DNA of 37,070 nt. It comes from a bacterium (GTDB taxonomy: Bacteria; Patescibacteriota; Patescibacteriia; 2-12-FULL-60-25). The notes below the pieces were generated by a model. That model was given only the letters and a program-made list of their open reading frames with translations. It had not been told where the DNA came from and made no database searches. Every line of letters begins with the position of its first letter. Position 1 is the stretch's first letter. Shown one piece after another: positions 3,162 to 21,857 of this stretch. Location: NCBI GenBank assembly GCA_021806685.1, contig JAJZQU010000004.1, positions 1 through 37,070 on the forward strand. Direction: 5' to 3'. A program made the position numbers and the translations under genes.

Positions 3162-3584
3162 TCAAAGCGAATCAACAATATCCTCAAAACTCTCAAACCT
3201 GATGATTGGATCAAACTTAAACTGTTGGTTAGCTGGGTTTTCGCTATAAAAAGCCTCGGTAAAAGGAATGGACAAAGACTTGTGGATGGCCATAATTGTT
3301 GGTTTGCCCATACCGGCAAACAATCCCACGTCGAAACCTCGGCCTTCGCTGGGATCTTCTGACGTATAGACACATAGTGCTGCATCGCAGTCCTTAACCA
3401 TCCTGTACTGAGCTTGAAGAACTTCTGTCTTGGGTTGCGACTGCCAATCCCAGTTTTGGATATCCTCAACCATAGTCACTACTTCGTGGCCTTTTAACTC
3501 AAGCAGACTCCTCAATTTAGTTAGTTGATTTTTAAGTTCATCCAAATCAGCTCCTCTGAATTTATAGGCCAGCCAAAACTTCAT
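3162..3584 (-). CDS. Nucleoside 2-deoxyribosyltransferase-like protein
   Basis: 140 aa, the length of the family's single-domain members. The N-terminus MKFWLAYKFRGADLDEL resembles the first strand and substrate loop. The C-terminal half has the family pattern of a small acidic strand and glycine-rich motif (DCDAALCVYTSEDPSEGRGFDVGLFAGMGK read in pieces), comparable to the G-x-x-x-E-[LI]-G-x-A loop of NDRTs. Such enzymes cleave or swap the N-glycosidic bond of nucleosides in salvage. Its ATG lies two bases after the FecR-protein stop, so the two genes are probably co-transcribed. Assignment is at fold level; a related lysine-decarboxylase-like or TIR-like Rossmann fold is possible. Confidence 0.6.
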   Translation of the reverse strand: MKFWLAYKFRGADLDELKNQLTKLRSLLELKGHEVVTMVEDIQNWDWQSQPKTEVLQAQYRMVKDCDAALCVYTSEDPSEGRGFDVGLFAGMGKPTIMAIHKSLSIPFTEAFYSENPANQQFKFDPIIRFESFEDIVDSL

Positions 3585-3586
3585 AG

Positions 3587-4654
3587 CTACGCCGACGGAC
3601 CAGCGGCACGCGGTGTGGTAGTTGGAGTGACTTCAAGCAGGTTGATTGACCTCAAGGGCGGTTGAAATTTTATAATTGTTGAAGAGCTGGCCATGTACAA
3701 CTGCTCTGCCCGTAACAACTCCGGCTGTTTTTCTTGCATCCACAGAATTGACCCAAGCCAGCGCTTCATCTGTTCCGGCGTTAAACCTGTATTCCAATAG
3801 TCATCCCAGGCCACCGGTACGCTCCACCTGAACGGGTTTTCCGGGCGCTTGAGCTCTATCGGGTCGATCTTATTGATGCCAAAGATATATCCAGGTTGTT
3901 TGCGTTCAGTCGCGCTTAAGCTGCGGATGTTTTTAAGCATCAAGGCGCGCATGTCAGTTATCTTATCGATGGATGCAGGATCAAGGCGCAGCCCGCTGCC
4001 AGCTGCCAATAAAACTGATTCTGAAACAGTATTACCCGTATTGAGCGCGGTCTGGGTCACAACTTCCACCTGGTGGTCAGCGACAGTCACATCTACTTCC
4101 TTGCCAACATATTGCACGCCAAAACCAGTGCCGCGGACAGTAGCTACTACATTGCTGGCATCAACTGACATGGCTTCGTCCGGGCCAAGCAACCTTTCCA
4201 AACGCGTCCAAATCTTACCTGCCTTCAATATTATTTTTATGCCTACGCCGCCTTCTTTTGGTTCACCGTTTGGCCCAAGCGTTACCTGCGTGCCTTGTTC
4301 CAAAACCGACATGCCTGCATCCGGATATAAGAGACGCGCTTCGCCAGACACGACCTGAATTTGGTCAGCGTAATACAACTCCATATTAGGCACTCCCTGC
4401 CTCTGTTCTACGCCGCGGGTAACTGTGATCTTAGCGTCTTTAGTCATCAAAAGATAGGCCAAGGGTTGCGGTTGGGCGGGTACTATTTCATCGGTTGATG
4501 TCGCAACGCCGGACGTACTCGTCGCCTCCGCCTGTTGTTGGACGTTTGACGTGTCACGTGTCACGTTTGATGCTGGCTTGTTGCACCCCCACCCGAAAAA
4601 AGATATCCCCGCAAGACTGACTGTCAGCGCGAGATAAGTAATGGATTTTTTCAT
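3587..4654 (-). CDS. FecR-domain envelope protein (possible lipoprotein)
   Basis: 355 aa. The N-terminus is a signal segment (MKKSITYLALTVSLAGISFF) ending at GWGC, a poor lipobox because W is at -2. A Thr/Ser/Gln linker holding a short repeat follows, then a FecR domain at about 75-210: ITVTRGVEQ, AGKIWTRLERLL, VVATVRGTGFGV and VTVADHQVEV are typical. The last ~100 residues are helical and Trp/Pro-rich. In Proteobacteria FecR is an anti-sigma factor, but here there is no partner sigma gene and the domain is predicted outside the membrane, so a structural or binding role is more likely. A TATCAT box 8 nt before the ATG is compatible with a near-leaderless mRNA. Confidence 0.8.
   Translation of the reverse strand: MKKSITYLALTVSLAGISFFGWGCNKPASNVTRDTSNVQQQAEATSTSGVATSTDEIVPAQPQPLAYLLMTKDAKITVTRGVEQRQGVPNMELYYADQIQVVSGEARLLYPDAGMSVLEQGTQVTLGPNGEPKEGGVGIKIILKAGKIWTRLERLLGPDEAMSVDASNVVATVRGTGFGVQYVGKEVDVTVADHQVEVVTQTALNTGNTVSESVLLAAGSGLRLDPASIDKITDMRALMLKNIRSLSATERKQPGYIFGINKIDPIELKRPENPFRWSVPVAWDDYWNTGLTPEQMKRWLGSILWMQEKQPELLRAEQLYMASSSTIIKFQPPLRSINLLEVTPTTTPRAAGPSA
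4541..4573. repeat. Short GTCACGT/TTTGAC repeat inside the FecR-protein gene
   Basis: On the plus strand GACGTTTGACGTGTCACG continues into GTGTCACGTTTGATG, a small direct and inverted repeat translated as DTSNV/ASNVTR in the linker behind the signal segment. The 12-mer TGTCACGTTTGA (4559-4570) recurs at 6241-6252 in the start of murJ. Confidence 0.6.
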
Positions 4655-4668
4655 ACTGTTATATGATA

Positions 4669-6291
4669 TCAGATTGAAGCTTTTTCCGCTCCTTCCTCGA
4701 TCTTGGCCTGGCGATAAAGTTTGAGTTTGATGGTATGTATGAAGTCATTCAGCTCTTCGATACGCAACAACCGCGCGACGGCGTAGAATGCCCCACAACC
4801 AACAACAATCGCTGCACCGGCTTGCAAGGCAACCTGCCAAAAAGTCCTAAGCGGGAAAAGAGTGCCCAAAGCCTGGCGAGCAACCCAGCCAAAACCAAAA
4901 AGTGCAATCGAAGCCAAGATGATCTTGGTCAGTGATTTGCCGACGTCCTTGCTGTCCAAATGGCCGAACTTGCCGCGCAGTAAATACCAAAGGAGTAGGA
5001 ACTGCGCAAAAGCATCAATTGAAAAGGCCGTTGCCAAGCCAACTACTCCCAACGGCTTGCGCAACAAATAGGCTAGGCCAGCGTTGGCTGCCAAAGAAAC
5101 AAGGCTCACATAAAACGGCGTCTTGGTGTCTTGCAAGGCATAAAAAACGCGGGCTGCCAGCGGAATCATAGCTTGGGCAATCAGCGAGAGGACAAAAATC
5201 GCCAAAACATCTGACGTGCGGATAGTAGCTTCCCAGTCAAAAGCGCCTGCGCCTAAAACCAAACGCACGATTTGGGCGCGCAATAACAGCATCAAGGCAG
5301 TGCACGGCACGATGAAAAACAAAATCTTACGGGTAGTGGCCAAGAATGCCTGTCTAAGACCTTCCATATCTTTATTGGCCGCCAATTGCGAAAATGATGG
5401 GAAGGCCGCAACGGCGAACGAAATGCCGATAAGCCCAATCGGAACATATTGTAAGTTATTGGCCAAATTAAAAACCGAGATGGAGCCTGACTCAAGCGAT
5501 GACGCAAAAACCAATAAAGCTACCAGGTTGACTTGTTGCGCTGCCAGGCCGGCAATGCGCGGTACCATAAGTTTTAAGATTTGGAGCACGCCGGGGTCTT
5601 TAAAACTCGGCGGCAGGATGCGCCTAAAACCCATGGGCAAAGCCACCAGGGCCTGGACCAAAAAATGCAAACCAGCTCCCAGGACAACGCCATAAGCCAC
5701 GCCCGCGATACCAAAAGAAGGAGTGAAGCCGATGATGCCAATGATTATGCCGACATTATAAAGCACTGGCGCTAGCGAGAATGCGATGAACCGCCTCGTG
5801 GCCTGCAAAACTCCTCCCATGACAGCCGAAAGGCCCAACGTAAAAGTCGAGATGAGCAGGATGCGCGAAAGGGTGATGGTAGTGGCCAGTTTATCTCCAA
5901 CAAAACCAGGCACTGTCCAAGGCACGACTTTGTCTGCAAAAATCGCCAAGACTAAACACACAATGCCAAGTATCAAGGCAATGGTCGTAAAAACTTTTTC
6001 TGCCAACTTCCAAGCTTCAGTATGTCCCTTCTTCTCAAGATATTCCGTAAAAACCGGAATAAAACCTGCGGACAAGGCTCCCAGCACAATTAACTGGTAG
6101 AAGAGGTCGGGCAAACGGAAGGCTGCATAATAAGCATCCAACATGTCGCCCGCGCCAAAATGTCCGGCCAATAACCTGTCACGCAATAAGCCGACGACAC
6201 GCGATGCGAGCGATGCAAAGCCAATCAAAAAAGCCGCCGCTGTCACGTTTGAAGTCTCTTTTTGCCAAAATTTTGTTATGAAGTTGAACAT
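4669..6291 (-). CDS. murJ: Lipid II flippase MurJ (MviN family)
   Basis: About 540 aa with some 14 hydrophobic helices, the length and topology of MurJ. Family signatures include the N-terminal LIGFASLASRVVGLLRDRLLA, GAGDMLDAYYAAFRLPDLFYQL, LSAGFIPVFTEYLEK and the later RVFYALQDTKTPFYVSL. MurJ moves lipid-linked peptidoglycan precursor across the membrane; conserved arginines line the cavity, and R(D)R residues are present in helix 1. I chose ATG 6291 (MFNFITKF) over the TTG at 6315 given in the track: the extra residues come from AT-rich repeat sequence, and AAAAGG sits immediately upstream of the ATG. The glycosyltransferase is upstream and the FecR-protein gene downstream. Confidence 0.95.
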   Translation of the reverse strand: MFNFITKFWQKETSNVTAAAFLIGFASLASRVVGLLRDRLLAGHFGAGDMLDAYYAAFRLPDLFYQLIVLGALSAGFIPVFTEYLEKKGHTEAWKLAEKVFTTIALILGIVCLVLAIFADKVVPWTVPGFVGDKLATTITLSRILLISTFTLGLSAVMGGVLQATRRFIAFSLAPVLYNVGIIIGIIGFTPSFGIAGVAYGVVLGAGLHFLVQALVALPMGFRRILPPSFKDPGVLQILKLMVPRIAGLAAQQVNLVALLVFASSLESGSISVFNLANNLQYVPIGLIGISFAVAAFPSFSQLAANKDMEGLRQAFLATTRKILFFIVPCTALMLLLRAQIVRLVLGAGAFDWEATIRTSDVLAIFVLSLIAQAMIPLAARVFYALQDTKTPFYVSLVSLAANAGLAYLLRKPLGVVGLATAFSIDAFAQFLLLWYLLRGKFGHLDSKDVGKSLTKIILASIALFGFGWVARQALGTLFPLRTFWQVALQAGAAIVVGCGAFYAVARLLRIEELNDFIHTIKLKLYRQAKIEEGAEKASI

Positions 6292-7645: not shown

Positions 7646-7692
7646 TGTTAGGCTCAATCATGGGGATTGGGCAAAAAAACCAAGGAGGCAAC

Positions 7693-8325
7693 GTGCAAAC
7701 TACAAAAGCACGCCTTACGCTGTTCCCGCACGGGCCTTCGTCACCGGAGACCCAAGAAAAACTCCGAGAGCTGCTCTTTCATTGCGGCGCCGATCTGAAC
7801 CGCATCATAGATCCGCACCTTCACACCCTCGATAGGTTCGTCAAATTCGTGTCCCGTTCCCGTTTCGATGATTTGGCTGATGAGGAAGGCGCTTCCGCTC
7901 CCATCATGGTCCTGACCAAGACAGAACCAGTCCTTCACAGGGTAGTCTTGGACACCTCTTTCCTCGTCAGGGATTTGCCAGTCACGGCTAAGTCGCTCTG
8001 GGTCGTCTACTTCACCGAGAAGGTTAAGGAACCGTTCTTCGAAGACGAGCTGCGTTCCCTGGGGGAATTCAGTCAAGCTTTGGATGACGAAATACCCTTG
8101 CTAGACCAGGCCCTGATCTGGAAAGACAAGAGGACCCAGCGCAGGTATTTGATCCTGACTCCGGACACGGCAAAAATGAACAGGGTAGAGGAGCGGGTCC
8201 GCTTGCTCGCCCTACCGCAACCCGCGGTCCCCCGCCTCAGAACAGGATTGTCCTCTACCACCCTGAGGACTGTCTACCCTGAGGAAATGATGGAGGAAGC
8301 CCGCGGCCGCGACTCAAAGCCCTGA
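7693..8325 (+). CDS. Hypothetical protein, monocistronic
   Basis: 210 aa from a GTG start. I moved the start from the track's 7660 because AAGGAGG lies 4 nt before GTG 7693 and residues 1-11 of the longer ORF are leader sequence. The product is soluble, acidic and mixed alpha/beta, without signal peptide or TM. It has a VVLDTSFLVRDLPV strand region, an Asp/Glu-rich middle, and an Arg-rich tail (RVEERVRLLALPQPAVPRLR). I do not recognise a family. GC and codon use are higher than in the core genes nearby, similar to the 8409 and 29101 genes. It has its own promoter and terminator and converges on the 8409 gene. Confidence 0.7.
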   Translation: MQTTKARLTLFPHGPSSPETQEKLRELLFHCGADLNRIIDPHLHTLDRFVKFVSRSRFDDLADEEGASAPIMVLTKTEPVLHRVVLDTSFLVRDLPVTAKSLWVVYFTEKVKEPFFEDELRSLGEFSQALDDEIPLLDQALIWKDKRTQRRYLILTPDTAKMNRVEERVRLLALPQPAVPRLRTGLSSTTLRTVYPEEMMEEARGRDSKP

Positions 8326-8353
8326 ACCAACCGGTTCCGGGCTAATTTTTTTT
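8318..8353 (+). terminator. Rho-independent terminator of the 7693 gene
   Basis: AGCCCTGAACC / GGTTCCGGGCT stem (one mismatch, 4-nt loop) followed by AATTTTTTTT. The stop codon lies inside the 5' arm. Confidence 0.85.
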
Positions 8354-8354
8354 G

Positions 8355-8383
8355 TAAAAAAATAGGCACGATAGTTCGTGCCC
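8355..8383 (-). terminator. Rho-independent terminator of the 8409 gene
   Basis: On the minus strand GGCACG-AACTAT-CGTGCC followed by TATTTTTTT. It is back to back with the plus-strand terminator, so the convergent pair is insulated from both sides. Confidence 0.8.
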
Positions 8384-8408
8384 GCCGACATTGCATCGGG
8401 AGTGGGGA

Positions 8409-9578
8409 TCAGACCTTGTAGGTCTCAACCACGATCTGGTTGCCCCTGAGAACGCAGGCCTTGAGAATCTTGGGTGCGGCCTCGGCCTCAAGAACGCTGT
8501 CACAAGTTTTGCTAATAATCTCATCGTCGTAGACCAGGTTCCAGCTGCCTGTTCCCCGAGTGTTTCGAGCGGCAAAAACCGGTTCGCGCTCGAAAACGCG
8601 CAAGGACGCATGATCAATCTCCGAGAAGGGGCGGCAAGTAGAGCCTCCGTAAACTACGAACTCATCGTCATTCCACCCACGAAGATGAAACAACAGTTCG
8701 CCACTCCACACAGACACGTCCCCGACCAGTTCGCCTAGGTGGCCAAACGTTGAAACCGACTGGCCACGCAAGACCCTCCAGATGCCGGGCCTTTCGGAAA
8801 CAAGACAGTGAACGCCATCCCGACGGGCATAGAGGTTGGAGATGTCGAACCCCTTCCACAAGCATTCACTGCCAGTGGTAAGTTCCCATGGCCCTTTCGG
8901 CCAGCGTTGCACCGGAAAGATGAGCTTGTTCTGGGCGAATACCGGCCGACGGTAGGCTACGCAGCTCATCTTGGCTTCTTGCTCGACGCGACCGTCGAAG
9001 CCGTAGATCCTGAGGACACGTTCCACCGGTTCTTGGATCGAAGCTCTGGGACCGTGCGCTATGACCCAGATCTTGCCGCCTATCGTCCAGTAATCTTCAA
9101 GCCCACGGATGCCGCCGATCAGCGGATCGGTTCGCAGGTTCTCAAGGATGTACCCAACGCCATCTTCGTCGCACGCGGCGTAGATCACTCTGGCCGTCTG
9201 AGCGTTGGGAGACGAAGGAGCCGTGAACATCTTCTCGGGCATAAAGACCCGGAGCGGCATGCCTTGCTCATTGGTAACCAGATGCCCGATTCCGCCGACA
9301 TCGAAAAAGTCGACGTCGCCTTCCCCCTCAGGACTCTTGGCCCGATCGACATAGACTGCCAGATCCCGCCCGCTCCATCCGAGCTTGCGGAGAGAGGTCA
9401 GGTATGCCGCCTTACCAGCCAAGGAACAGCTCCATTCGCCCAAGACCACATACCCCGGAGCTTCGGCCACGGCATAGAGCGGCTGGCCGTTGGAAGCTTG
9501 CAGATCAGAACGTTCATACTCGTTGGTCCGCCTGTACTCACGAGGCAGAAGGGCTGACTCACTCGATGTAATGTGCAT
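8409..9578 (-). CDS. Hypothetical protein, probable beta-propeller-like repeats
   Basis: 389 aa from ATG 9578, chosen over the track's 9629 because AAGGAGGTTACGAAAA precedes it. No signal peptide or TM. Roughly 45-55-residue units recur, each with an aromatic strand and turn: PLYAVAEAPGYVVLGEW, RVIYAACDEDGVGYIL, KIWVIAHG, KLIFPVQRWPKGPWEL, DGVHCLVSERPGIWRV, GELLFHLRGWNDDEFVVYGG. Such W/G-rich short strands suggest a beta-propeller (Kelch- or WD-like), but I cannot match it to a named family. It is a monocistron with a consensus promoter and strong terminator, of similar style to the convergent 7693 gene. Confidence 0.7.
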   Translation of the reverse strand: MHITSSESALLPREYRRTNEYERSDLQASNGQPLYAVAEAPGYVVLGEWSCSLAGKAAYLTSLRKLGWSGRDLAVYVDRAKSPEGEGDVDFFDVGGIGHLVTNEQGMPLRVFMPEKMFTAPSSPNAQTARVIYAACDEDGVGYILENLRTDPLIGGIRGLEDYWTIGGKIWVIAHGPRASIQEPVERVLRIYGFDGRVEQEAKMSCVAYRRPVFAQNKLIFPVQRWPKGPWELTTGSECLWKGFDISNLYARRDGVHCLVSERPGIWRVLRGQSVSTFGHLGELVGDVSVWSGELLFHLRGWNDDEFVVYGGSTCRPFSEIDHASLRVFEREPVFAARNTRGTGSWNLVYDDEIISKTCDSVLEAEAAPKILKACVLRGNQIVVETYKV

Positions 9579-14119: not shown

Positions 14120-14572
14120 ATGTTAGACACTGAACTAAAAGTTGGCGACAAGGCGCCGATCTTCACACTCAAAACCCAAGACAACAAAGATATCAACCTA
14201 AGTGACTATATTGGGAAAGAACCTATTATCCTATTTTTTTATCCCGGCGATATGACACCGGGCTGCACTATCCAGCTTTGCAATATCCGCGATGACTGGT
14301 CAAAATTCAAACAAGCCAGAGCTACTGTCTTTGGCATAAACCATGCGGACGCGGACAGCCACAAACGCTTTTCATCCAAATATAACTTCCCTTTCCCGCT
14401 GCTCATAGATACAGATAAAAAAGTCAGTAAAAAATACGGGGCAGTCAAAAAACTTTTTTCAGCTACTGTCATCAAACGCACTGTTGTGGCCATTGGTAAG
14501 GATGGAATAATCAAGTTCTACCGCCACGGAATGCCTAAAGACATCGAAATCCTTAAATCAATCAATAAATAA
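14120..14572 (+). CDS. bcp: Peroxiredoxin, Bcp/PrxQ type
   Basis: 150 aa, the standard PrxQ length. The active site is FFYPGDMTPGCTIQLC: peroxidatic Cys in TPGCT with the resolving Cys five residues later, the intrahelical arrangement of Bcp. The peroxidatic Thr and catalytic Arg (VIKRTVV) are present. It reduces H2O2 and organic hydroperoxides using thioredoxin or glutaredoxin. It is the first of three antioxidant genes in a row on the plus strand (bcp, sod, ahpC). A palindromic repeat separates it from sod. Confidence 0.93.
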   Translation: MLDTELKVGDKAPIFTLKTQDNKDINLSDYIGKEPIILFFYPGDMTPGCTIQLCNIRDDWSKFKQARATVFGINHADADSHKRFSSKYNFPFPLLIDTDKKVSKKYGAVKKLFSATVIKRTVVAIGKDGIIKFYRHGMPKDIEILKSINK

Positions 14573-14581
14573 CTCATCCGT

Positions 14582-14663
14582 GTCATTTCGACCGGAACGA
14601 AGTGAAGTGGAGAAATCTCAGTTAACCAAGATTCCTCGACTCGTCGAACTCCCTCGGAATGAC
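14582..14663. repeat. 82-bp imperfect palindromic repeat between bcp and sod
   Basis: Begins GTCATTTCGACCGGAACGAA and ends CTCCCTCGGAATGAC. The terminal inverted repeat is GTCATTyCGA, with internal GGAGAAATCTC and GATTCCTCGACTCGTCGA arms. The right end contains the first possible ATG of sod. It has the form of a MITE/REP-like interspersed element; a shorter relative (TCATCCTGAACG...GAAGGAT) lies near 30211. Confidence 0.75.
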
Positions 14664-14670
14664 AAACTAT

Positions 14671-15264
14671 ATGACCCCAAAACTCCCTCTCCCCTTCTCC
14701 GGGGCGCAAGGCAACATCAGTGAAAAAACCCTGGCCATCCATCACGATAAGCTTTATGTCGGTTATGTCGATAAAAAGGATGAGATCTCAGAAAAACTCA
14801 AGGCTTTATCGCATGGCGGCGATGTCTCGGCGGCCAACCAAAGCTATTCCGAATTGCGTGCCCTCAAAGACGGGGAGACATTTGCTGTTAATGGGACTTA
14901 CCTGCACGAATGGTATTTCGAAAACCTGGGTGGCGACGGCAAACCCATGGACAAGATCGCCTCTGCCTTGGCAGATAAGTACGGCTCCATGGAAAACTTC
15001 CTCAAATACTTTGCTGCTTGCGGCATGGCAGCCCGCGGCTGGGTGGTGTTGGCCTGGGATACGCATGACAAAGCCTTAAAGATTTATAATGGCGACGCAC
15101 ACAACCAAGGTGGCGTCTGGGGCGCCATCCCATTGTTGGTCTTGGATGTTTATGAACATGCTTACTTTATTGATTTTGGCTCAGACCGCAAGACTTATAT
15201 CCAAGAATTTATCAACCACATAAACTGGTCCGTAGTCGAACAACGTTACCTGGCCGCAATCTAA
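14671..15264 (+). CDS. Superoxide dismutase, Fe/Mn family
   Basis: About 197 aa. The metal ligands can be aligned: His in TLAIHHDK (about residue 22), His in TYLHEWYF, and Asp and His in LDVYEHAYFIDF. GWVVLAWD and the RKTYIQEFINHINW ending are typical. It dismutates superoxide to O2 and H2O2, which the flanking peroxiredoxins can remove. The second-shell pair normally GKHH is DKLY here, so the gateway His is replaced by Leu; an atypical subfamily. I prefer ATG 14671 (MTPKLPLPF aligns with family N-termini); ATG 14659 lies inside the repeat's end. AhpC follows 4 nt after the stop. Confidence 0.92.
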   Translation: MTPKLPLPFSGAQGNISEKTLAIHHDKLYVGYVDKKDEISEKLKALSHGGDVSAANQSYSELRALKDGETFAVNGTYLHEWYFENLGGDGKPMDKIASALADKYGSMENFLKYFAACGMAARGWVVLAWDTHDKALKIYNGDAHNQGGVWGAIPLLVLDVYEHAYFIDFGSDRKTYIQEFINHINWSVVEQRYLAAI

Positions 15265-15268
15265 AAAT

Positions 15269-15793
15269 ATGTTAAACCTCAACCACGCGGCTCCGCCCTT
15301 TAGCGGAATTACCGCCTACCAAAAAGGAGAATTCAAAAAAATCAGTTTATCTGATTATAAAGGGCAATGGCTAATCCTCTTCTTCTATCCAAGAGACTTT
15401 ACCTTTGTTTGCCCAACTGAAATCAAGGCCTTCTCCGCACAGGAGCCTGAGTTCAAAAAGTTCAATGCTTCAATCCTGGCAGCTTCAACCGATTCCGAGT
15501 GGAGCCACAAGGCTTGGTTTGAACGCGATTTGCCCGAGGTAAACTTCCCAATCCTGGCCGACACCTCGCATAGCCTATCAAAGGCTTACGACGTTTTTAA
15601 CGAAGAAGATGGTTCAGCTAACCGTGGACTATTTATTGTCGACCCTGACCAAATGGTCCGCTATGCGCTAATCAGCGCCGGGTCAGTCGGCCGTTCGGTT
15701 ATGGAGACGCTGCGCGTACTAGAAGCCCTGCAGACTGGCGAGCTTTGCCCGGCTGAATGGAAAATAGGCGAAAAAACGTTAGGCAAAGCCTAA
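15269..15793 (+). CDS. ahpC: Alkyl hydroperoxide reductase AhpC, typical 2-Cys peroxiredoxin
   Basis: 174 aa. Peroxidatic Cys in FYPRDFTFVCPTEIKAF (about 50), resolving Cys in TGELCPAEW (about 160), the classic 2-Cys decamer type with GRSVMETLRVLEALQ before the C-terminal arm. It reduces hydroperoxides; no AhpF is visible, so the reductant is probably thioredoxin or a disulfide reductase elsewhere. Start is 4 nt after the sod stop, so the genes are co-transcribed, and a strong hairpin terminator follows. Confidence 0.95.
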   Translation: MLNLNHAAPPFSGITAYQKGEFKKISLSDYKGQWLILFFYPRDFTFVCPTEIKAFSAQEPEFKKFNASILAASTDSEWSHKAWFERDLPEVNFPILADTSHSLSKAYDVFNEEDGSANRGLFIVDPDQMVRYALISAGSVGRSVMETLRVLEALQTGELCPAEWKIGEKTLGKA

Positions 15794-15803
15794 ACCTTTA
15801 ATC

Positions 15804-15833
15804 AAAAACCCCGACGTGATGTCGGGGTTTTTT
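15804..15833 (+). terminator. Bidirectional terminator between ahpC and surface protein gene
   Basis: AAAAACCCCGAC-GTGAT-GTCGGGGTTTTTT: 7-bp GC stem with A-run on one side and T-run on the other, so it serves ahpC on the plus strand and the minus-strand surface gene as well. Confidence 0.9.
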
Positions 15834-15846
15834 ATTTTCTTGATCC

Positions 15847-18800
15847 TTAAGCCTTACCTAGGTTATCACTGATCGTAGCCTCTAAACTCATGGCAGTGCT
15901 CGCGTTGAAGTCAGCGGCGGAGTCGATGTCAGACCCAAATGAGTAGTTAGAGAAGAAGGCATCAGACATGTCATCAATAAACGTGTTCCAGTTGTCACCA
16001 TAGAGGGCCTTGGCAGCAGCTTCTGTCTTGACCCAGCGTAAGACACCATTAGCATCCACGGCATAGACTTTAGGGTCTGTGGTGAACTTAACCATACGGG
16101 AACCAGGCTTATAGCGGACATTGGAGCCTAAGGGAATACTAGCTAACTGTTCAGCTGTAATGATCCGGACGCCTGAGAAGTCCTTATACCAAGTGAAGTA
16201 TATCTTGGAGTTGGGGAAAGCATGGCGTTTGCCATCAGAACCAATGTAATAGACAGCACTGTCCTCTTGGGTGGCACCGTTGTTGTCATCCGGCAGTTTA
16301 ACCAAGGAATTGACTGGCAAACCCATGGAACTCAGGTTATTCAGGTAAGTTGTGCGGTTAGGATCACTGGTTTCTGATTGGAACTGGGTTGTGACCGGAG
16401 GTAAGCCTCCACCACCACCGCCTGGGGGAGTAACCACGCCGGTTGAGTAGGTTAAAGTGGCTGTCGTGGCACCAGTGTCTGTTGCGTCTTGGTTATCAGT
16501 ATAGGTTTCGGTGCCAATGCCGCTGGCTGAGATTATAACCTCTCCATTGCCAGGCACGATTGTTGTGCCAGTATACAAGCCAACAAGCCCTGAACGGAAG
16601 ATGCCTGTGGCTACACCGGTTTCAGTCAGGGTAACTGTTTCGCTATCCCCTCCACCGGCTGCATTAACTACCAAGGGCACTGTCAGGGTCTCTACTGCCG
16701 CACCATTCATGTTGCGGTTGTTATCCTTGACTTCAAGATAAATGGCACCAGGTGTGGTGTATGAAGTCTGGGTTACGCCACTGGCATTAACGAAGTTCTT
16801 ATAGCTGGCTGCATGCTTTATCTTACCTGTGGTACGGGTGACCAAACCAGCGTTCCCATAGTTGCCTGGGGCATAAAAGATCTTATCGGCTACGGCTAAA
16901 GTACCTGCTGTCAGGAGAAAGTTAGTAGTAGACACATTGCCGGTTAGAGTAGCAACTCCAGCCAACTTATTGACTCCAAAATTATAGAAGCTGGCTTCTG
17001 TGCCAATGGATTGGGCACCACCGCCATTAAACTTCACCCCACCACCAACCGGTGTCAGGGTTCCGGTATCTGTCCAATTGCCACCTACGTTCAGCGTTTC
17101 GCCGTTTAACCTGATCGTTCCGGAACTTGTTATCGAACCAGTTGAAGTGGACTCTGCGCCTAGACCAAGCGTACCCGAATTTGTCAGTGAGGTCATTGTA
17201 ATAGGACCTGAACTTGAGCCTAGAGAACCTGCATTATTTACGGCAGCAAAGGCCAAGGTGCCGGAAGTTGATGTCACTGTAGTGCTGGCACGAATAGTGG
17301 TACCACCTGATACAGTAAAGTTAACAGAACCCGCTGAAAGCGTGCCTCCGACATAGGTGTCGAACACATTGGCAACAGTCACGTCGGCCGTGTTAAAAGT
17401 GGCAGTACCAGCAGATTTCCTATTCTCTAAATTATAGAATGCCATGCCGCGGATTGATTGGTTGGCAGTGCCATAGAAGGTGACTGTACAGGTATTGGCA
17501 TTGAACGTGCCGGGAGCCGGACTGATAAAGTTCGCTACGAGTGCAAACTTGCCAGTGTTACAGTTAATAGTGCCTCCTGAGTTATCCAGTGTCCCTGTAG
17601 TTGTAGCCACGCCAGCACCGACGTTCAGGATGCCACTGTTAGCTAAAGTTGAGCCAAACATCGTGTTGCCATCAACCGATCCGATACTGCCTGAGTTGAT
17701 CACAGCTCCGTTGAAAGTCAACGTGCCAGAAGTGGAAGTGGCTGTACCAGCGATAGTTGAGGCACCGGCGACTGTCAATGATCTAATGTCAGCATTTAGC
17801 GTGCTGGCACTGCCAACAAACAATGTTCCATTAACCATACAGTTCGCGCTCAAGGTTGCATCACCTCCAACAGTCTGAATGTTCAGATTATTGTAAGTAT
17901 AAGAACAATTCACACCTTGAGCTCCGGTTGCTCTGGCGTATTTCACAGTTCCAGACTGAGCGTTAAAAGTGGCACCAGTTGGCCAGATAAAATTTACATT
18001 CGCGGTATTTGCCGCAAGAACAATGGTACCGGAATTTCCATTTATAGTTCCATCACCCGGAAAGGTTATCGTCGAAGTGGCCGTCCCATGTCCGATATTT
18101 AAGACACCAGAGGCATTAGCGAATGACAATGAGGGGAAAAGCATGTTTCCATACGAGCTTCCAATGAATCCTGCATTAGCAATACCTGCAAGACTTAGTG
18201 TTCCCGTGGTCGAAGTGACCGTTGATCCAACAATCGAGACGCCATGCAGTGCCGTCAAAGCTCTGTCGGCTGCGTTAAGCGTGCCAGCACCTTCCATGGT
18301 TAAGGTACCATCGAGGGTTACATCAGCAGTTACTATGGTGACCGTACCAGCAGACTTTCTGAACTCGACATTATAGAATGTGACTCCCCGGATGGATTGA
18401 TTAGCCGTTCCATAAAACCAGGTGGTACCTGCCTGACCATTAAATGTTCCTGCACCTGAGTAGTCAGCAATTAGCGCCAATTTACCTGATTCTTGATTAA
18501 TGGTTCCCGTATTAGTCAAAGAGCCTGTTGAAGTTGCCGTACCCGCACCAAGGCTCAACGTACCGCTGTTATCCAAGGTTGAAGCGAATAGCTCACTGCC
18601 CGAAACCGTTCCGATATTGCCTACATTAGTCACAGCCCCTGTGAAAGTGAGGGTACCGGAAGTCGAGGTGACGGTTGTTAAGGCGCCGATGGCTGTGGTT
18701 AAAGCCACGGATAAAGCATTGCCTTGCATGTCCAGAGTTCCGCCACCCGCAGTTGCTAATGTGCCGTCAATCGTGACAGCAGCTGCAGCTGTAACCGTGC

Positions 18801-19239
18801 CTGAGGCTTTGGTGACAGTGACATTGTTAAAGGTTGTGACACTATTGATGGTTTGGGCTGCAGTGCCAGTAAAATCAATAGTACTGGTACCGGCTGTAAA
18901 AGTTCCAGCCTTAGTCCAATTGCCATTAACACTTAAAGTGCTGCCCCAAGGCTTGAGGGTTCCAGTGATAGTGACTGAACCGGCTGTAGCCGCAGTGTTT
19001 GCCAAAATATAAGTCGTGGTTGCCGCAGGGATCACAACTGGTGATGTGCTGGTTGGTACTCCACCGCAACCCCAGTTGGCAGCAACGTGCCAGCTGTTAG
19101 TTGGTTCTGTACTGGCAAAAGTACAAGTACCGGCAGAAGCTGAATGGCCTTGTATTAACCCATAGGCTAATACGACAAAGCAGCCTATCAGTATCTTGCT
19201 AGATATACTGACAAGCCTGTTATTGAAAAGAAGGTTCAT
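15847..19239 (-). CDS. Large exported repeat protein, surface/adhesin-like (paralog 1)
   Basis: 1130 aa from MNLLFNNR, the start shared with its paralog; the track's 19290 start lies in the promoter and leader. Signal peptide about 1-36 with cleavage near SASA-G. Residues ~40-850 are Thr/Ser/Gly/Asn repeats of about 95-110 aa built on TSTSGTLTFxGAV, LxNSGTLNxGxG, GTANQSIRG and YNxExRKSAGTxT, consistent with a beta-helix. Then comes an Ig-like module (GDSETVTLTETGVATG), a Gly-rich hinge and a C-terminal domain of ~130 aa (SAVYYIGSDGKRHAFPNSK, KFTTDPKVYAVDANGVLRWV, DDMSDAFFSNY) that I recall from CPR surface proteins. No LPxTG or TM anchor. Probably a cell-surface or secreted adhesin. Confidence 0.85.
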   Translation of the reverse strand: MNLLFNNRLVSISSKILIGCFVVLAYGLIQGHSASAGTCTFASTEPTNSWHVAANWGCGGVPTSTSPVVIPAATTTYILANTAATAGSVTITGTLKPWGSTLSVNGNWTKAGTFTAGTSTIDFTGTAAQTINSVTTFNNVTVTKASGTVTAAAAVTIDGTLATAGGGTLDMQGNALSVALTTAIGALTTVTSTSGTLTFTGAVTNVGNIGTVSGSELFASTLDNSGTLSLGAGTATSTGSLTNTGTINQESGKLALIADYSGAGTFNGQAGTTWFYGTANQSIRGVTFYNVEFRKSAGTVTIVTADVTLDGTLTMEGAGTLNAADRALTALHGVSIVGSTVTSTTGTLSLAGIANAGFIGSSYGNMLFPSLSFANASGVLNIGHGTATSTITFPGDGTINGNSGTIVLAANTANVNFIWPTGATFNAQSGTVKYARATGAQGVNCSYTYNNLNIQTVGGDATLSANCMVNGTLFVGSASTLNADIRSLTVAGASTIAGTATSTSGTLTFNGAVINSGSIGSVDGNTMFGSTLANSGILNVGAGVATTTGTLDNSGGTINCNTGKFALVANFISPAPGTFNANTCTVTFYGTANQSIRGMAFYNLENRKSAGTATFNTADVTVANVFDTYVGGTLSAGSVNFTVSGGTTIRASTTVTSTSGTLAFAAVNNAGSLGSSSGPITMTSLTNSGTLGLGAESTSTGSITSSGTIRLNGETLNVGGNWTDTGTLTPVGGGVKFNGGGAQSIGTEASFYNFGVNKLAGVATLTGNVSTTNFLLTAGTLAVADKIFYAPGNYGNAGLVTRTTGKIKHAASYKNFVNASGVTQTSYTTPGAIYLEVKDNNRNMNGAAVETLTVPLVVNAAGGGDSETVTLTETGVATGIFRSGLVGLYTGTTIVPGNGEVIISASGIGTETYTDNQDATDTGATTATLTYSTGVVTPPGGGGGGLPPVTTQFQSETSDPNRTTYLNNLSSMGLPVNSLVKLPDDNNGATQEDSAVYYIGSDGKRHAFPNSKIYFTWYKDFSGVRIITAEQLASIPLGSNVRYKPGSRMVKFTTDPKVYAVDANGVLRWVKTEAAAKALYGDNWNTFIDDMSDAFFSNYSFGSDIDSAADFNASTAMSLEATISDNLGKA

Positions 19240-19278
19240 AAATATATAAAAGAATAAATTCTTTTGATTTATGCACAT

Positions 19279-19287
19279 AGTATACCA
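19279..19287 (-). promoter_or_regulatory. Extended -10 promoter of surface gene paralog 1
   Basis: Minus strand TGG-TATACT, 39 bp before ATG 19239. No good -35 at 17 bp, as expected for an extended -10. Confidence 0.5.
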
Positions 19288-19293
19288 CATACT

Positions 19294-19325
19294 AAAAGAG
19301 ACGCCCAGATGGGCGTCTCTTTTTA
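19294..19325 (-). terminator. Terminator between the surface paralogs
   Basis: AAAAGAGACGCCC-AGAT-GGGCGTCTCTTTTT: a 13-bp near-perfect stem with T-run on each strand. It ends paralog 2 just upstream of the paralog 1 promoter, so the two are separate transcription units. Confidence 0.85.
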
Positions 19326-19336
19326 CTTATAATCAC

Positions 19337-21805
19337 CTAGAAGTCTTCACTGATATTCTGTTCACTGGCCATGACTTTGCTCACATCAAAGTCTGCTGAT
19401 GAGTTGATATCAGCCCCAAAGGAGTAGCTGCCAAAGAAAGCATCTGACATGTCGTCAATCTTAGTGTTCCAATCAGCACCATATAATGCTTTGGCTACAT
19501 CTTCACTCTTTATGAAGCGCAGTGTGCCCTTAAGATCAATGGCAAATACCCTAATATCTGTAGTAAATTTGATCATCTTAGAACCTGGCTTATAGCGAAC
19601 ATTAGCGCCCAGTGGGATACTGGCCAATTGGCTGGAAGTTATGACTTTAACTTTGTCGAAATTGCTATACCATGTGAAATATACCTTTGAATTGGGGAAG
19701 GCATGGCGCTTGCCATCACTACTGATGTAGTAAACAGCACTATCCTCTTGGGTGGATATGTTTCCATCATCAGGTAATTTGACCAAGGTGTTGATATCTA
19801 AACCCATGGAACTCAGGTTAGCCAGATTGGCTGAGCGATTTGGGTCGCTGGTTCCTGTTTCATAATGGGTTACAACCGGAGGCAAACCCCCACCGCCACC
19901 TCCACCACCCCGAGGGGCAGCAGCGCCGGTTGAGTAGGTCAAAGTGGCTGTCGTGGCGCCAGTATCTGCCGGATCTTGGTTATCAGTATAGGTTTCTGTG
20001 CCAATGCCGCTGGCTGAGATTACAACTTCCCCATTGCCTGGCACGATTGATGTGCCTGTGTACAAGCCAATAAGTCCAGAACGGAAGACGCCTGTGGCTA
20101 CACCGGTTTCTGTTAAGGTGACTGTTTCGCTGTCACCGCCACCGGCTGCATTAACTACCAATGGAATGGTCAAAGTTTCCGCCAGGGCACCGTTCATGTT
20201 GCGGTTATCATCTTTAACCTCAAGGTAGATGGCGCCAGGTGTGGTGTATGAAGTTTGGGTTACGCCGCTCGCATTAACGAAGTTCTTATAGCTGGCTGCA
20301 TGCTTAATACTGCCTGTGGTGCGGGTGACCAGGCCGTGATTAATATAAGTACCTTGAGCACTGAATATTTTGTTAACTACGGCCAAGGTGCCTGCTGACA
20401 AGGTAAAATTAGTAGTGGTTGCATGACCGTCTAAAGTGGCCGTGCCTGCTGATTTATTAATAACTAAGTTGTTATATATATACTCTCCCCTAACGTCCTG
20501 AGGGGTTGCTCCTACATAGCGCACGGTTCCTGAACCGCGGTTAAAAGTACCGCCCGTGGGCCACGAATCAGTTATAACCAAAGTGCCGCTATTGCCGTTA
20601 ATAATACCAGGAATGGAAAAAATGCTCATGGTAGTCGTAACCGTGCCTGAACCAACATTCAAGGTGCCATTATTTATCAAGTCCGCCTCGAATACAATAT
20701 CGCCTGACGATGAGCCGACATTCCCGGAGTTACCAACTGCGCTAAAAAAGTCCAATAGGCCTGTTGTTGAGGTCACGGTGCCCCCTGGAATGATGGTCGT
20801 ATTATTTAAGACCAATAAATTGGCGGCCCCTGCCGAAAGAGTGCCCCCAGCTACAAATAACGTGCCACCAAATAACGCGTTGGCACCCGTTAACGTGGCC
20901 GTACCACCGGTTTTGAAGACCTCAACATTATTATATTCATACCCCCTTATACTCTGGTCAGCTCCACCACCCAATCTGACTGTACCTGTCCCTGAATTAA
21001 ATGTGCCCGGCGCTGGGCTGACAAAATTAGCTAGTAATATAAGCGTACCCGTATCACCATTGATGGTACCACCGGAGTTATCCAGCGTGCCGGTGGATGT
21101 AGCCACACCTGAACCGATATTTAGGGTACCGCTGTTAGCCAGAGTTGAACCAAACATTTTGCCGCCATCAACCGAGCCGATGGCGCCAGAGTTGGTTACG
21201 GCTCCAGTGAAAGTTAAGGTGCCGGAAGTCGAGGTTACAGTTGTTAGGGCACCAATGGCTGTGGTTAAAGCTACGGATAAAGCATTACCTTGCATGTCCA
21301 GAGTTCCGCCACCCGTAGTTGCCAACGTACCGTTAATCGTGACAGCAGCTGCGGCCGTAACCGTACCCGATGCTTTGGTGACAGTGACATTGTTAAAGGT
21401 CGTAACGCTGTTAATGGTTTGCGCTGCAGTGCCCGTAAAATCGACGGTACTGGTACCGGCTGTAAAAGTTCCGGTTCTTGTCCAATTGCCGTTAATGCTC
21501 AAAGTACTGCCCCAGGGCTTGAGAGTTCCAGTGATGGTGACTGAACCTGCTGTGGCCGCAGCATCCGCCAAAATATATGTTGTGGTTGCCGCAGGAATCA
21601 CTACTGGCGAGGTGCTGGTCGGGACTCCACCGCAACCCCAGTTAGCAGCGATCTTCCAGTTATTAGTCGGCTCTGTACTGGCAAAAGTACAAGTACCGGC
21701 ATAAGCCGAATGGCTCTGTATTAACCCATAGGCTAATACGATAAAGCAGCCTACCAGTATCTTGCTCGCTATACTGAAAGACCGATTATTGAAAAGTAAA
21801 TTCAT
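19337..21805 (-). CDS. Large exported repeat protein, surface/adhesin-like (paralog 2)
   Basis: 822 aa, same architecture as paralog 1 with fewer central repeats. Signal peptide MNLLFNNRSFSIASKILVGC..., then ~270 residues nearly identical to paralog 1, a divergent shorter repeat region (LVITDSWPTGGTFNRGSG, ATPQDVRGEYIYNNLV), a nearly identical Ig-like module (GDSETVTLTETGVATGVF) with Gly8 hinge, and a C-terminal domain about 70% identical by eye (SAVYYISSDGKRHAFPNSK). Long antisense ORFs here are artefacts of GT-rich repeats. Tandem duplication with loss or gain of repeat units is the likely origin. Surface-exposed; anchoring mechanism not visible. Confidence 0.85.
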   Translation of the reverse strand: MNLLFNNRSFSIASKILVGCFIVLAYGLIQSHSAYAGTCTFASTEPTNNWKIAANWGCGGVPTSTSPVVIPAATTTYILADAAATAGSVTITGTLKPWGSTLSINGNWTRTGTFTAGTSTVDFTGTAAQTINSVTTFNNVTVTKASGTVTAAAAVTINGTLATTGGGTLDMQGNALSVALTTAIGALTTVTSTSGTLTFTGAVTNSGAIGSVDGGKMFGSTLANSGTLNIGSGVATSTGTLDNSGGTINGDTGTLILLANFVSPAPGTFNSGTGTVRLGGGADQSIRGYEYNNVEVFKTGGTATLTGANALFGGTLFVAGGTLSAGAANLLVLNNTTIIPGGTVTSTTGLLDFFSAVGNSGNVGSSSGDIVFEADLINNGTLNVGSGTVTTTMSIFSIPGIINGNSGTLVITDSWPTGGTFNRGSGTVRYVGATPQDVRGEYIYNNLVINKSAGTATLDGHATTTNFTLSAGTLAVVNKIFSAQGTYINHGLVTRTTGSIKHAASYKNFVNASGVTQTSYTTPGAIYLEVKDDNRNMNGALAETLTIPLVVNAAGGGDSETVTLTETGVATGVFRSGLIGLYTGTSIVPGNGEVVISASGIGTETYTDNQDPADTGATTATLTYSTGAAAPRGGGGGGGGLPPVVTHYETGTSDPNRSANLANLSSMGLDINTLVKLPDDGNISTQEDSAVYYISSDGKRHAFPNSKVYFTWYSNFDKVKVITSSQLASIPLGANVRYKPGSKMIKFTTDIRVFAIDLKGTLRFIKSEDVAKALYGADWNTKIDDMSDAFFGSYSFGADINSSADFDVSKVMASEQNISEDF

Positions 21806-21848: not shown

Positions 21849-21857
21849 AAGATACCA
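21849..21857 (-). promoter_or_regulatory. Extended -10 promoter of surface gene paralog 2
   Basis: Minus strand TGG-TATCTT, 43 bp before ATG 21805, at a position matching TGG-TATACT of paralog 1. The promoter may have been duplicated with the gene. Confidence 0.45.

What the first reader, a model, noticed from the sequence alone, without database searches (positions are those of the whole stretch)
15847..21805. Tandem mosaic surface proteins: conserved ends, divergent repeat core
Paralogs 1 and 2 are nearly identical over the first ~270 residues and over the Ig-like module, moderately similar in the C-terminal domain, but differ in number and sequence of central repeats. That pattern suggests gene conversion or repeat shuffling of an exposed adhesin, possibly antigenic or host-specificity variation. 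Each has its own extended -10 promoter and terminator.
Basis: partly seen in the sequence, partly recalled or inferred. Interest (0 to 1): 0.55.

Follow-up and report, generated by a model that had tools for sequence, protein, structure and literature searches.

The report
Two mosaic rod-shaped surface protein genes
Two neighbouring genes of a tiny uncultured Patescibacteria bacterium encode secreted rod-shaped surface proteins of different length that swap parts with each other by recombination, and they end in an undescribed domain, carried by nearly every sampled relative, that probably fixes proteins to the cell surface.

Summary
The mosaic is real. Two tandem genes (SMALL 19337-21805, 822 aa; BIG 15847-19239, 1130 aa, both on the - strand) share a signal peptide, an N-terminal cap and an Ig-like module at ~90% protein identity. 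They differ by two ~152-aa repeat units and have a C-terminal domain only 68% identical. The contrast also shows at synonymous sites (pS 0.41/0.43 versus 0.73), and segment trees conflict: Ig groups BIG with SMALL, while in the C-terminal domain that grouping is disfavoured and BIG lies nearer its positional ortholog in a related species. Recombination between paralogs explains this; purifying selection alone does not. A relative's tandem pair shares a 1,166-bp identical tract between ~55% and ~77% identical flanks. The syntenic site in another relative holds one 8-unit gene. AlphaFold gives a beta-helix rod. The Ig-like module matches the Nitrosopumilus S-layer protein by sequence and fold. 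The C-terminal domain has no Pfam or NCBIfam family, folds confidently as two EccB/PlyCB-like repeats, and sits at a protein end in nearly all members. Nearly all sampled class genomes carry it; SLH was not found there and sortase is patchy. I infer a non-covalent surface anchor. Antigenic or host-specificity variation is untested; cassette and DGR mechanisms are not supported.

The parts
19337..21805 (-). SMALL paralog, 822 aa secreted beta-helix surface protein with 2 repeat units
15847..19239 (-). BIG paralog, 1130 aa, same architecture with 4 repeat units
21695..21805 (-). SMALL signal peptide (residues 1-37)
   Evidence: n-region positives plus hydrophobic stretch, sequence
21236..21694 (-). 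SMALL N-terminal cap, weak G8-like similarity (residues 38-190); homogenised with BIG
   Evidence: Pfam G8 E=0.0027 but below the curated cut-off; pS 0.41
20336..21235 (-). SMALL beta-helix units 1-2 (~152 aa each, residues 191-490)
19910..20335 (-). SMALL S-layer-type Ig-like module (residues 491-632); homogenised with BIG
19853..19909 (-). SMALL Gly-rich linker
   Evidence: sequence
19340..19852 (-). SMALL C-terminal domain (residues 652-822): two EccB/PlyCB-like repeats
19129..19239 (-). BIG signal peptide (residues 1-37)
   Evidence: sequence
18670..19128 (-). BIG N-terminal cap (residues 38-190)
16849..18669 (-). BIG beta-helix units 1-4 (residues 191-797); unit 3 is closest to SMALL unit 1
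16423..16848 (-). BIG S-layer-type Ig-like module (residues 798-939)
16372..16422 (-). BIG Gly-rich linker
   Evidence: sequence
15850..16371 (-). BIG C-terminal domain (residues 957-1130), 91% identical to the positional ortholog in relative G004
19279..19287 (-). candidate extended -10 of BIG (TGGTATACT), in a leader homologous to SMALL's
21849..21857 (-). candidate extended -10 of SMALL (TGGTATCTT, weak)
19294..19323 (-). intrinsic terminator after SMALL
   Evidence: z -5.6
15804..15832 (.). bidirectional terminator shared by BIG and the convergent peroxiredoxin gene

Best explanation
BIG and SMALL are secreted cell-surface rods. A signal peptide exports each protein. The N-terminal cap and repeat units fold into a right-handed beta-helix stalk of variable length, followed by an S-layer-type Ig-like module, a glycine hinge and a C-terminal domain of two EccB/PlyCB-like repeats that holds the protein non-covalently on the envelope. 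The genes arose by tandem duplication that included the promoter leader. They evolve as mosaics: unequal exchange adds or removes whole ~152-aa units, and gene conversion re-homogenises stretches (N-cap and Ig here; the last stalk unit plus Ig in a relative), while stalk cores and anchors diverge. Shown by computation: mosaic, synonymous contrast, conflicting phylogenies, the identical tract, unit-number differences, fold predictions, distribution. Inferred: anchoring to the wall, and a role in contact with other cells or surfaces.
For: Synonymous contrast in BIG/SMALL. Ig tree groups BIG+SMALL (99/93) and disfavours BIG+G004 (p-AU 0.025); C-domain data disfavour BIG+SMALL (p-AU 0.037). BIG C-domain to G004 dS 0.70 lies in the range of flanking genes (0.65-1.07), against 2.85 to SMALL; Ig BIG/SMALL 0.65 against 1.25-1.64 to G004. 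L018 pair: 1,166 bp identical with ~55% and ~77% flanks. Same site with one 8-unit gene in G002. AF2 pLDDT 87.4 for the rod, Foldseek hits to Ag43, EspC, SepA and other beta-helix passengers at weak E. Ig module matches Nitrosopumilus S-layer, profile E 1.6e-7 and fold E 3.8e-5. C-domain: pLDDT 93.8; nine of the ten best PDB fold matches are EccB structures (E 0.04-1.5), whose repeats resemble wall-associated PlyCB (PMC4769845); phage fold matches E 5e-6 and weaker hits to CHAP, amidase and lysin proteins; internal duplication E 0.0013; position at a protein terminus in nearly all members. Present in 37 of 38 genomes of the relatives search, G000 included, and in 18 of 21 sampled same-class genomes against 2 of about 265 outside. 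No SLH in 24 genomes, sortase in 6 of 24 and not found in this genome.
Against: EccB matches are weak (E >= 0.04, global TM ~0.28, whole-domain arrangement differs), and EccB's own wall binding is unproven. AU p-values are only just below 0.05, and the C-domain tree does not resolve BIG+G004 as a clade (that grouping is neither recovered nor rejected). The G001 identical tract comes from a metagenome assembly. No expression, localisation or binding data exist. Lower dS in two segments could partly reflect codon constraint.
Confidence: 0.62

Rival explanations
1. No recombination: an old tandem duplication in which N-cap and Ig are under strong purifying selection while the stalk and C-domain drift or adapt.
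For: Conserved segments have low pN (about 0.05); paralogs can differ in constraint by domain.
Against: Synonymous divergence differs sharply between segments, trees of segments conflict, and a 1,166-bp identical tract with sharp edges exists in a relative's pair.
Confidence: 0.12
2. Antigenic or host-specificity variation system: exchange serves to diversify an exposed ligand-binding stalk within a population, as in vlsE, pilE or MgPa.
For: Surface location, repeat-unit number differences between species and divergent cores; Patescibacteria are inferred to be epibionts; a third paralog in the genome.
Against: Conversion here homogenises constant parts, the core shows no recent exchange in this pair, no silent partial cassettes were found with SMALL as query in an 85% complete genome, and the gene-length differences are between species.
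Confidence: 0.15
3. The C-terminal domain is not an anchor but a secretion or sorting signal, or a ligand-binding head, with the protein held otherwise.
For: C-terminal position in the long rods resembles secretion signals of T1SS or T9SS; domain is well conserved.
Against: The same domain sits right after the signal peptide in other proteins, which argues against a C-terminal secretion signal; no C-terminal hydrophobic segment or LPXTG; fold resembles envelope-located repeats.
Confidence: 0.3

Closest known systems
Beta-helix adhesins of the autotransporter passenger type (Ag43, EspC/SepA, TibA)
   Same: Long right-handed beta-helix exposed outside the cell, weak fold matches.
   Different: No C-terminal translocator barrel; other anchor domain; different phylum. 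Sequence homology was not found.
Nitrosopumilus maritimus S-layer protein (8c8k, PMC11153153)
   Same: Ig-like module matches by sequence profile E 1.6e-7 and by fold.
   Different: One module only; the rest of the protein is a beta-helix rod.
EccB repeat domains / PlyCB wall-binding repeats (PMC4769845)
   Same: About 55-65-aa repeats with a beta sheet and two helices, arranged as duplicated units; envelope location.
   Different: No sequence-family match, no transmembrane helix or EccB core domain; two repeats only.
Adhesin gene conversion in small genomes (Mycoplasma genitalium MgPa, PMC2169797; H. pylori outer-membrane adhesins)
   Same: Recombination among paralogous surface genes.
   Different: No silent cassettes found; here the constant parts are homogenised, not the variable core.

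Membership tests
Autotransporter (type Va) adhesins | beta-helical passenger | tested here: met
   AF2 repeated short strands, pLDDT 87.4; weak fold hits to passengers
Autotransporter (type Va) adhesins | C-terminal translocator beta-barrel | tested here: not met
   C-domain is a mixed alpha/beta two-repeat fold; no Pfam barrel
Sortase-anchored surface proteins | LPXTG plus C-terminal hydrophobic segment and sortase | tested here: not met
   No motif or hydrophobic tail; no sortase found in this 85% complete genome
SLH-anchored S-layer proteins | SLH domains (PF00395) | tested here: not met
   Not found in the two proteins nor in 24 genomes, controls positive
EccB (type VII secretion) | EccB family sequence match | tested here: not met
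   No EccB match in Pfam or NCBIfam
EccB (type VII secretion) | EccB-like repeat fold | tested here: inconclusive
   Consistent top fold matches but E 0.04 or worse
G8-domain proteins | G8 domain over the curated cut-off | tested here: inconclusive
   18 bits against cut-off 22.9
Cassette-type antigenic variation loci | silent donor cassettes with exchange into the variable core | tested here: not met
   Only long open frames and C-domain relatives matched in own genome; genome 85% complete, so not final
DGR target genes | variable repeat matching a template repeat with A-specific changes | tested here: not met
   Template repeats of the genome's two DGRs do not match the window
Wall-binding anchor modules | binds peptidoglycan or secondary wall polymer | not testable with these tools
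   Needs biochemistry

The most novel reading that the evidence does not exclude
The C-terminal domain is a major non-covalent surface anchor of a whole class of Patescibacteria, a functional counterpart of SLH and sortase systems built from duplicated EccB/PlyCB-like repeats, and it carries a rapidly recombining set of rod-shaped contact proteins.
Probability: 0.45. Interest if true: 0.68.

Novelty: new variant of a known kind. Interest (0 to 1): 0.5.

Why it matters
How Patescibacteria, which lack much of the usual machinery, hold proteins on their surface and touch their hosts is poorly known. A domain found up to a dozen or so times per genome across a class, with a confident fold and no family entry, gives a searchable tag for their exposed proteins and a simple binding experiment. 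The recombining stalks are natural candidates for host contact, though that is not shown.

Tried and rejected
DGR-driven variation: the genome has two DGRs, but their template repeats do not match this family. Phase variation by short tandem repeats: none found; the Gly linker is not a homopolymer. Sortase/LPXTG and SLH anchoring: rejected. Pfam and NCBIfam gave no family for the C-domain; PHROGs gave only weak unnamed hits; PDB sequence hits were chance antibody matches; tblastn against phages gave only chance hits. Papers: no description of this domain or of beta-helix proteins in Patescibacteria found in the held library. Strain comparison not possible: one genome per species held.

Full report
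Observation. The window lies in contig 13 of a 0.92-Mb, 85% complete genome; close relatives are titled Patescibacteria group bacterium. Two tandem genes on the - strand encode SMALL (19337-21805, 822 aa) and BIG (15847-19239, 1130 aa). Alignment gives 91% identity over residues 1-204, 89% over the Ig-like module and 68% over the C-terminal domain, with a core that does not align one to one. The core is built of units of 147-159 aa starting at a TSTSG-like motif: two in SMALL, four in BIG, eight in the ortholog of relative G002. BIG unit 3 is the closest match of SMALL unit 1. Both genes end in strong terminators and have homologous leaders; the promoter calls themselves are plausible but not beyond chance as patterns.

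Is it recombination? Selection on protein sequence alone would leave synonymous sites alike along the gene. They are not: pS is 0.41 in the N-terminal part and 0.43 in Ig, but 0.73 in the C-terminal domain and saturated in much of the core. The positional ortholog in relative G004, the gene next to peroxiredoxin (the contig ends inside the gene), gives the cross-check. Its C-domain is 91% identical to BIG's, at the synonymous distance of flanking genes (dS 0.70 against 0.65-1.07), whereas its Ig is less like BIG's (dS 1.64) than SMALL's is (0.65). Trees agree in part: BIG+SMALL in Ig with support 99/93, the alternative at p-AU 0.025; BIG+SMALL disfavoured in the C-domain at p-AU 0.037, but BIG+G004 is neither recovered nor rejected there. 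These p-values are modest. In relative G001 (L018) the tandem pair shares 1,166 bp without a difference, covering the last stalk stretch and Ig up to the linker, between flanks of about 55% and 77% identity. Assembly collapse is unlikely to make two very different sequences identical, so near-identity is likely real, but read support is needed.

Locus dynamics. The site between pepA-glutaredoxin and peroxiredoxin-SOD-Bcp-lipoprotein is conserved. It holds two genes here, one 1744-aa gene in G002, and at least one in G004. G000 has a third paralog at a contig end (C21) and further C-domain proteins with other N-terminal parts.

Structure. AF2 of SMALL 38-632 gives a beta-helix followed by an Ig-like region of lower confidence (mean pLDDT 87.4). 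Fold matches are to beta-helix passengers and tailspikes at weak E, and for a ~130-residue stretch, which I take to be the Ig part, to the Nitrosopumilus S-layer at E 3.8e-5, supported independently by a profile match of the Ig alignment at E 1.6e-7. The C-domain model is confident (pLDDT 93.8) and shows two beta-beta-beta-alpha-beta-alpha repeats; profile comparison of the halves supports an internal duplication (E 0.0013, score 20.3 against at most 15.3 in 30 column shuffles). Nine of its ten best PDB fold matches are EccB, with weak E-values. EccB repeats were described as four-stranded sheets with two helices resembling PlyCB, a phage subunit that tethers a lysin to the wall, and the authors note that binding by EccB is not shown (PMC4769845). 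Viral fold matches include short phage proteins at E 5e-6 and, weakly, CHAP, amidase and lysin proteins.

Distribution. Searched with SMALL, 37 of 38 genomes (G000 included) match, mostly through the C-domain, with up to 14 matched stretches per genome. With the C-domain profile, 18 of 21 sampled same-class genomes besides G000 match, against 2 of about 265 other genomes of the phylum, with up to 12 matches per genome. The domain is placed at the extreme C-terminus or near the signal peptide in nearly all listed open frames. The same class shows no SLH in 24 genomes and sortase in 6 of 24. This is what one expects of an anchor module, but it is inference.

Judgement. The evolutionary reading (exchange between paralogs, unit-number change) is well supported between species. 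The functional reading (antigenic or host-specificity variation) has no direct support, and cassette and DGR mechanisms are not supported. The most useful new point is the undescribed, class-wide C-terminal domain.

Noticed in passing
L065 (G000:C14) 3545-5703: Diversity-generating retroelement: RT, Avd-like gene, and a 136-nt repeat pair in which all 23 mismatches are at T (A on the other strand).
   Followed up: partly
L064 (G000:C12) 7681-9400: Second DGR-like locus: RT 7846-8805(-), Avd-like ORF 8877-9224, and an inverted 86% repeat of ~140 nt (about 9241-9379 and 7681-7820).
   Followed up: partly
window 14120-15793: Conserved Bcp-SOD-peroxiredoxin cluster convergent to BIG, kept next to the surface gene in G002 and G004.
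   Followed up: partly
L015 (G000:C3) and relatives: A ~1300-aa protein with the C-domain just after the signal peptide recurs in many relatives; candidate S-layer-like major surface protein.
   Followed up: no
L014:2764-3648 and relatives: A ~290-300-aa protein of one Ig-like domain plus the C-domain, next to a uvrA-like gene in G000, recurs in many relatives.
   Followed up: no
G004:C15 and G004:C17 (L019, L051): C-domains of two different proteins in one genome are 94.7% identical with dS 0.21, suggesting exchange of the anchor domain too.
   Followed up: no
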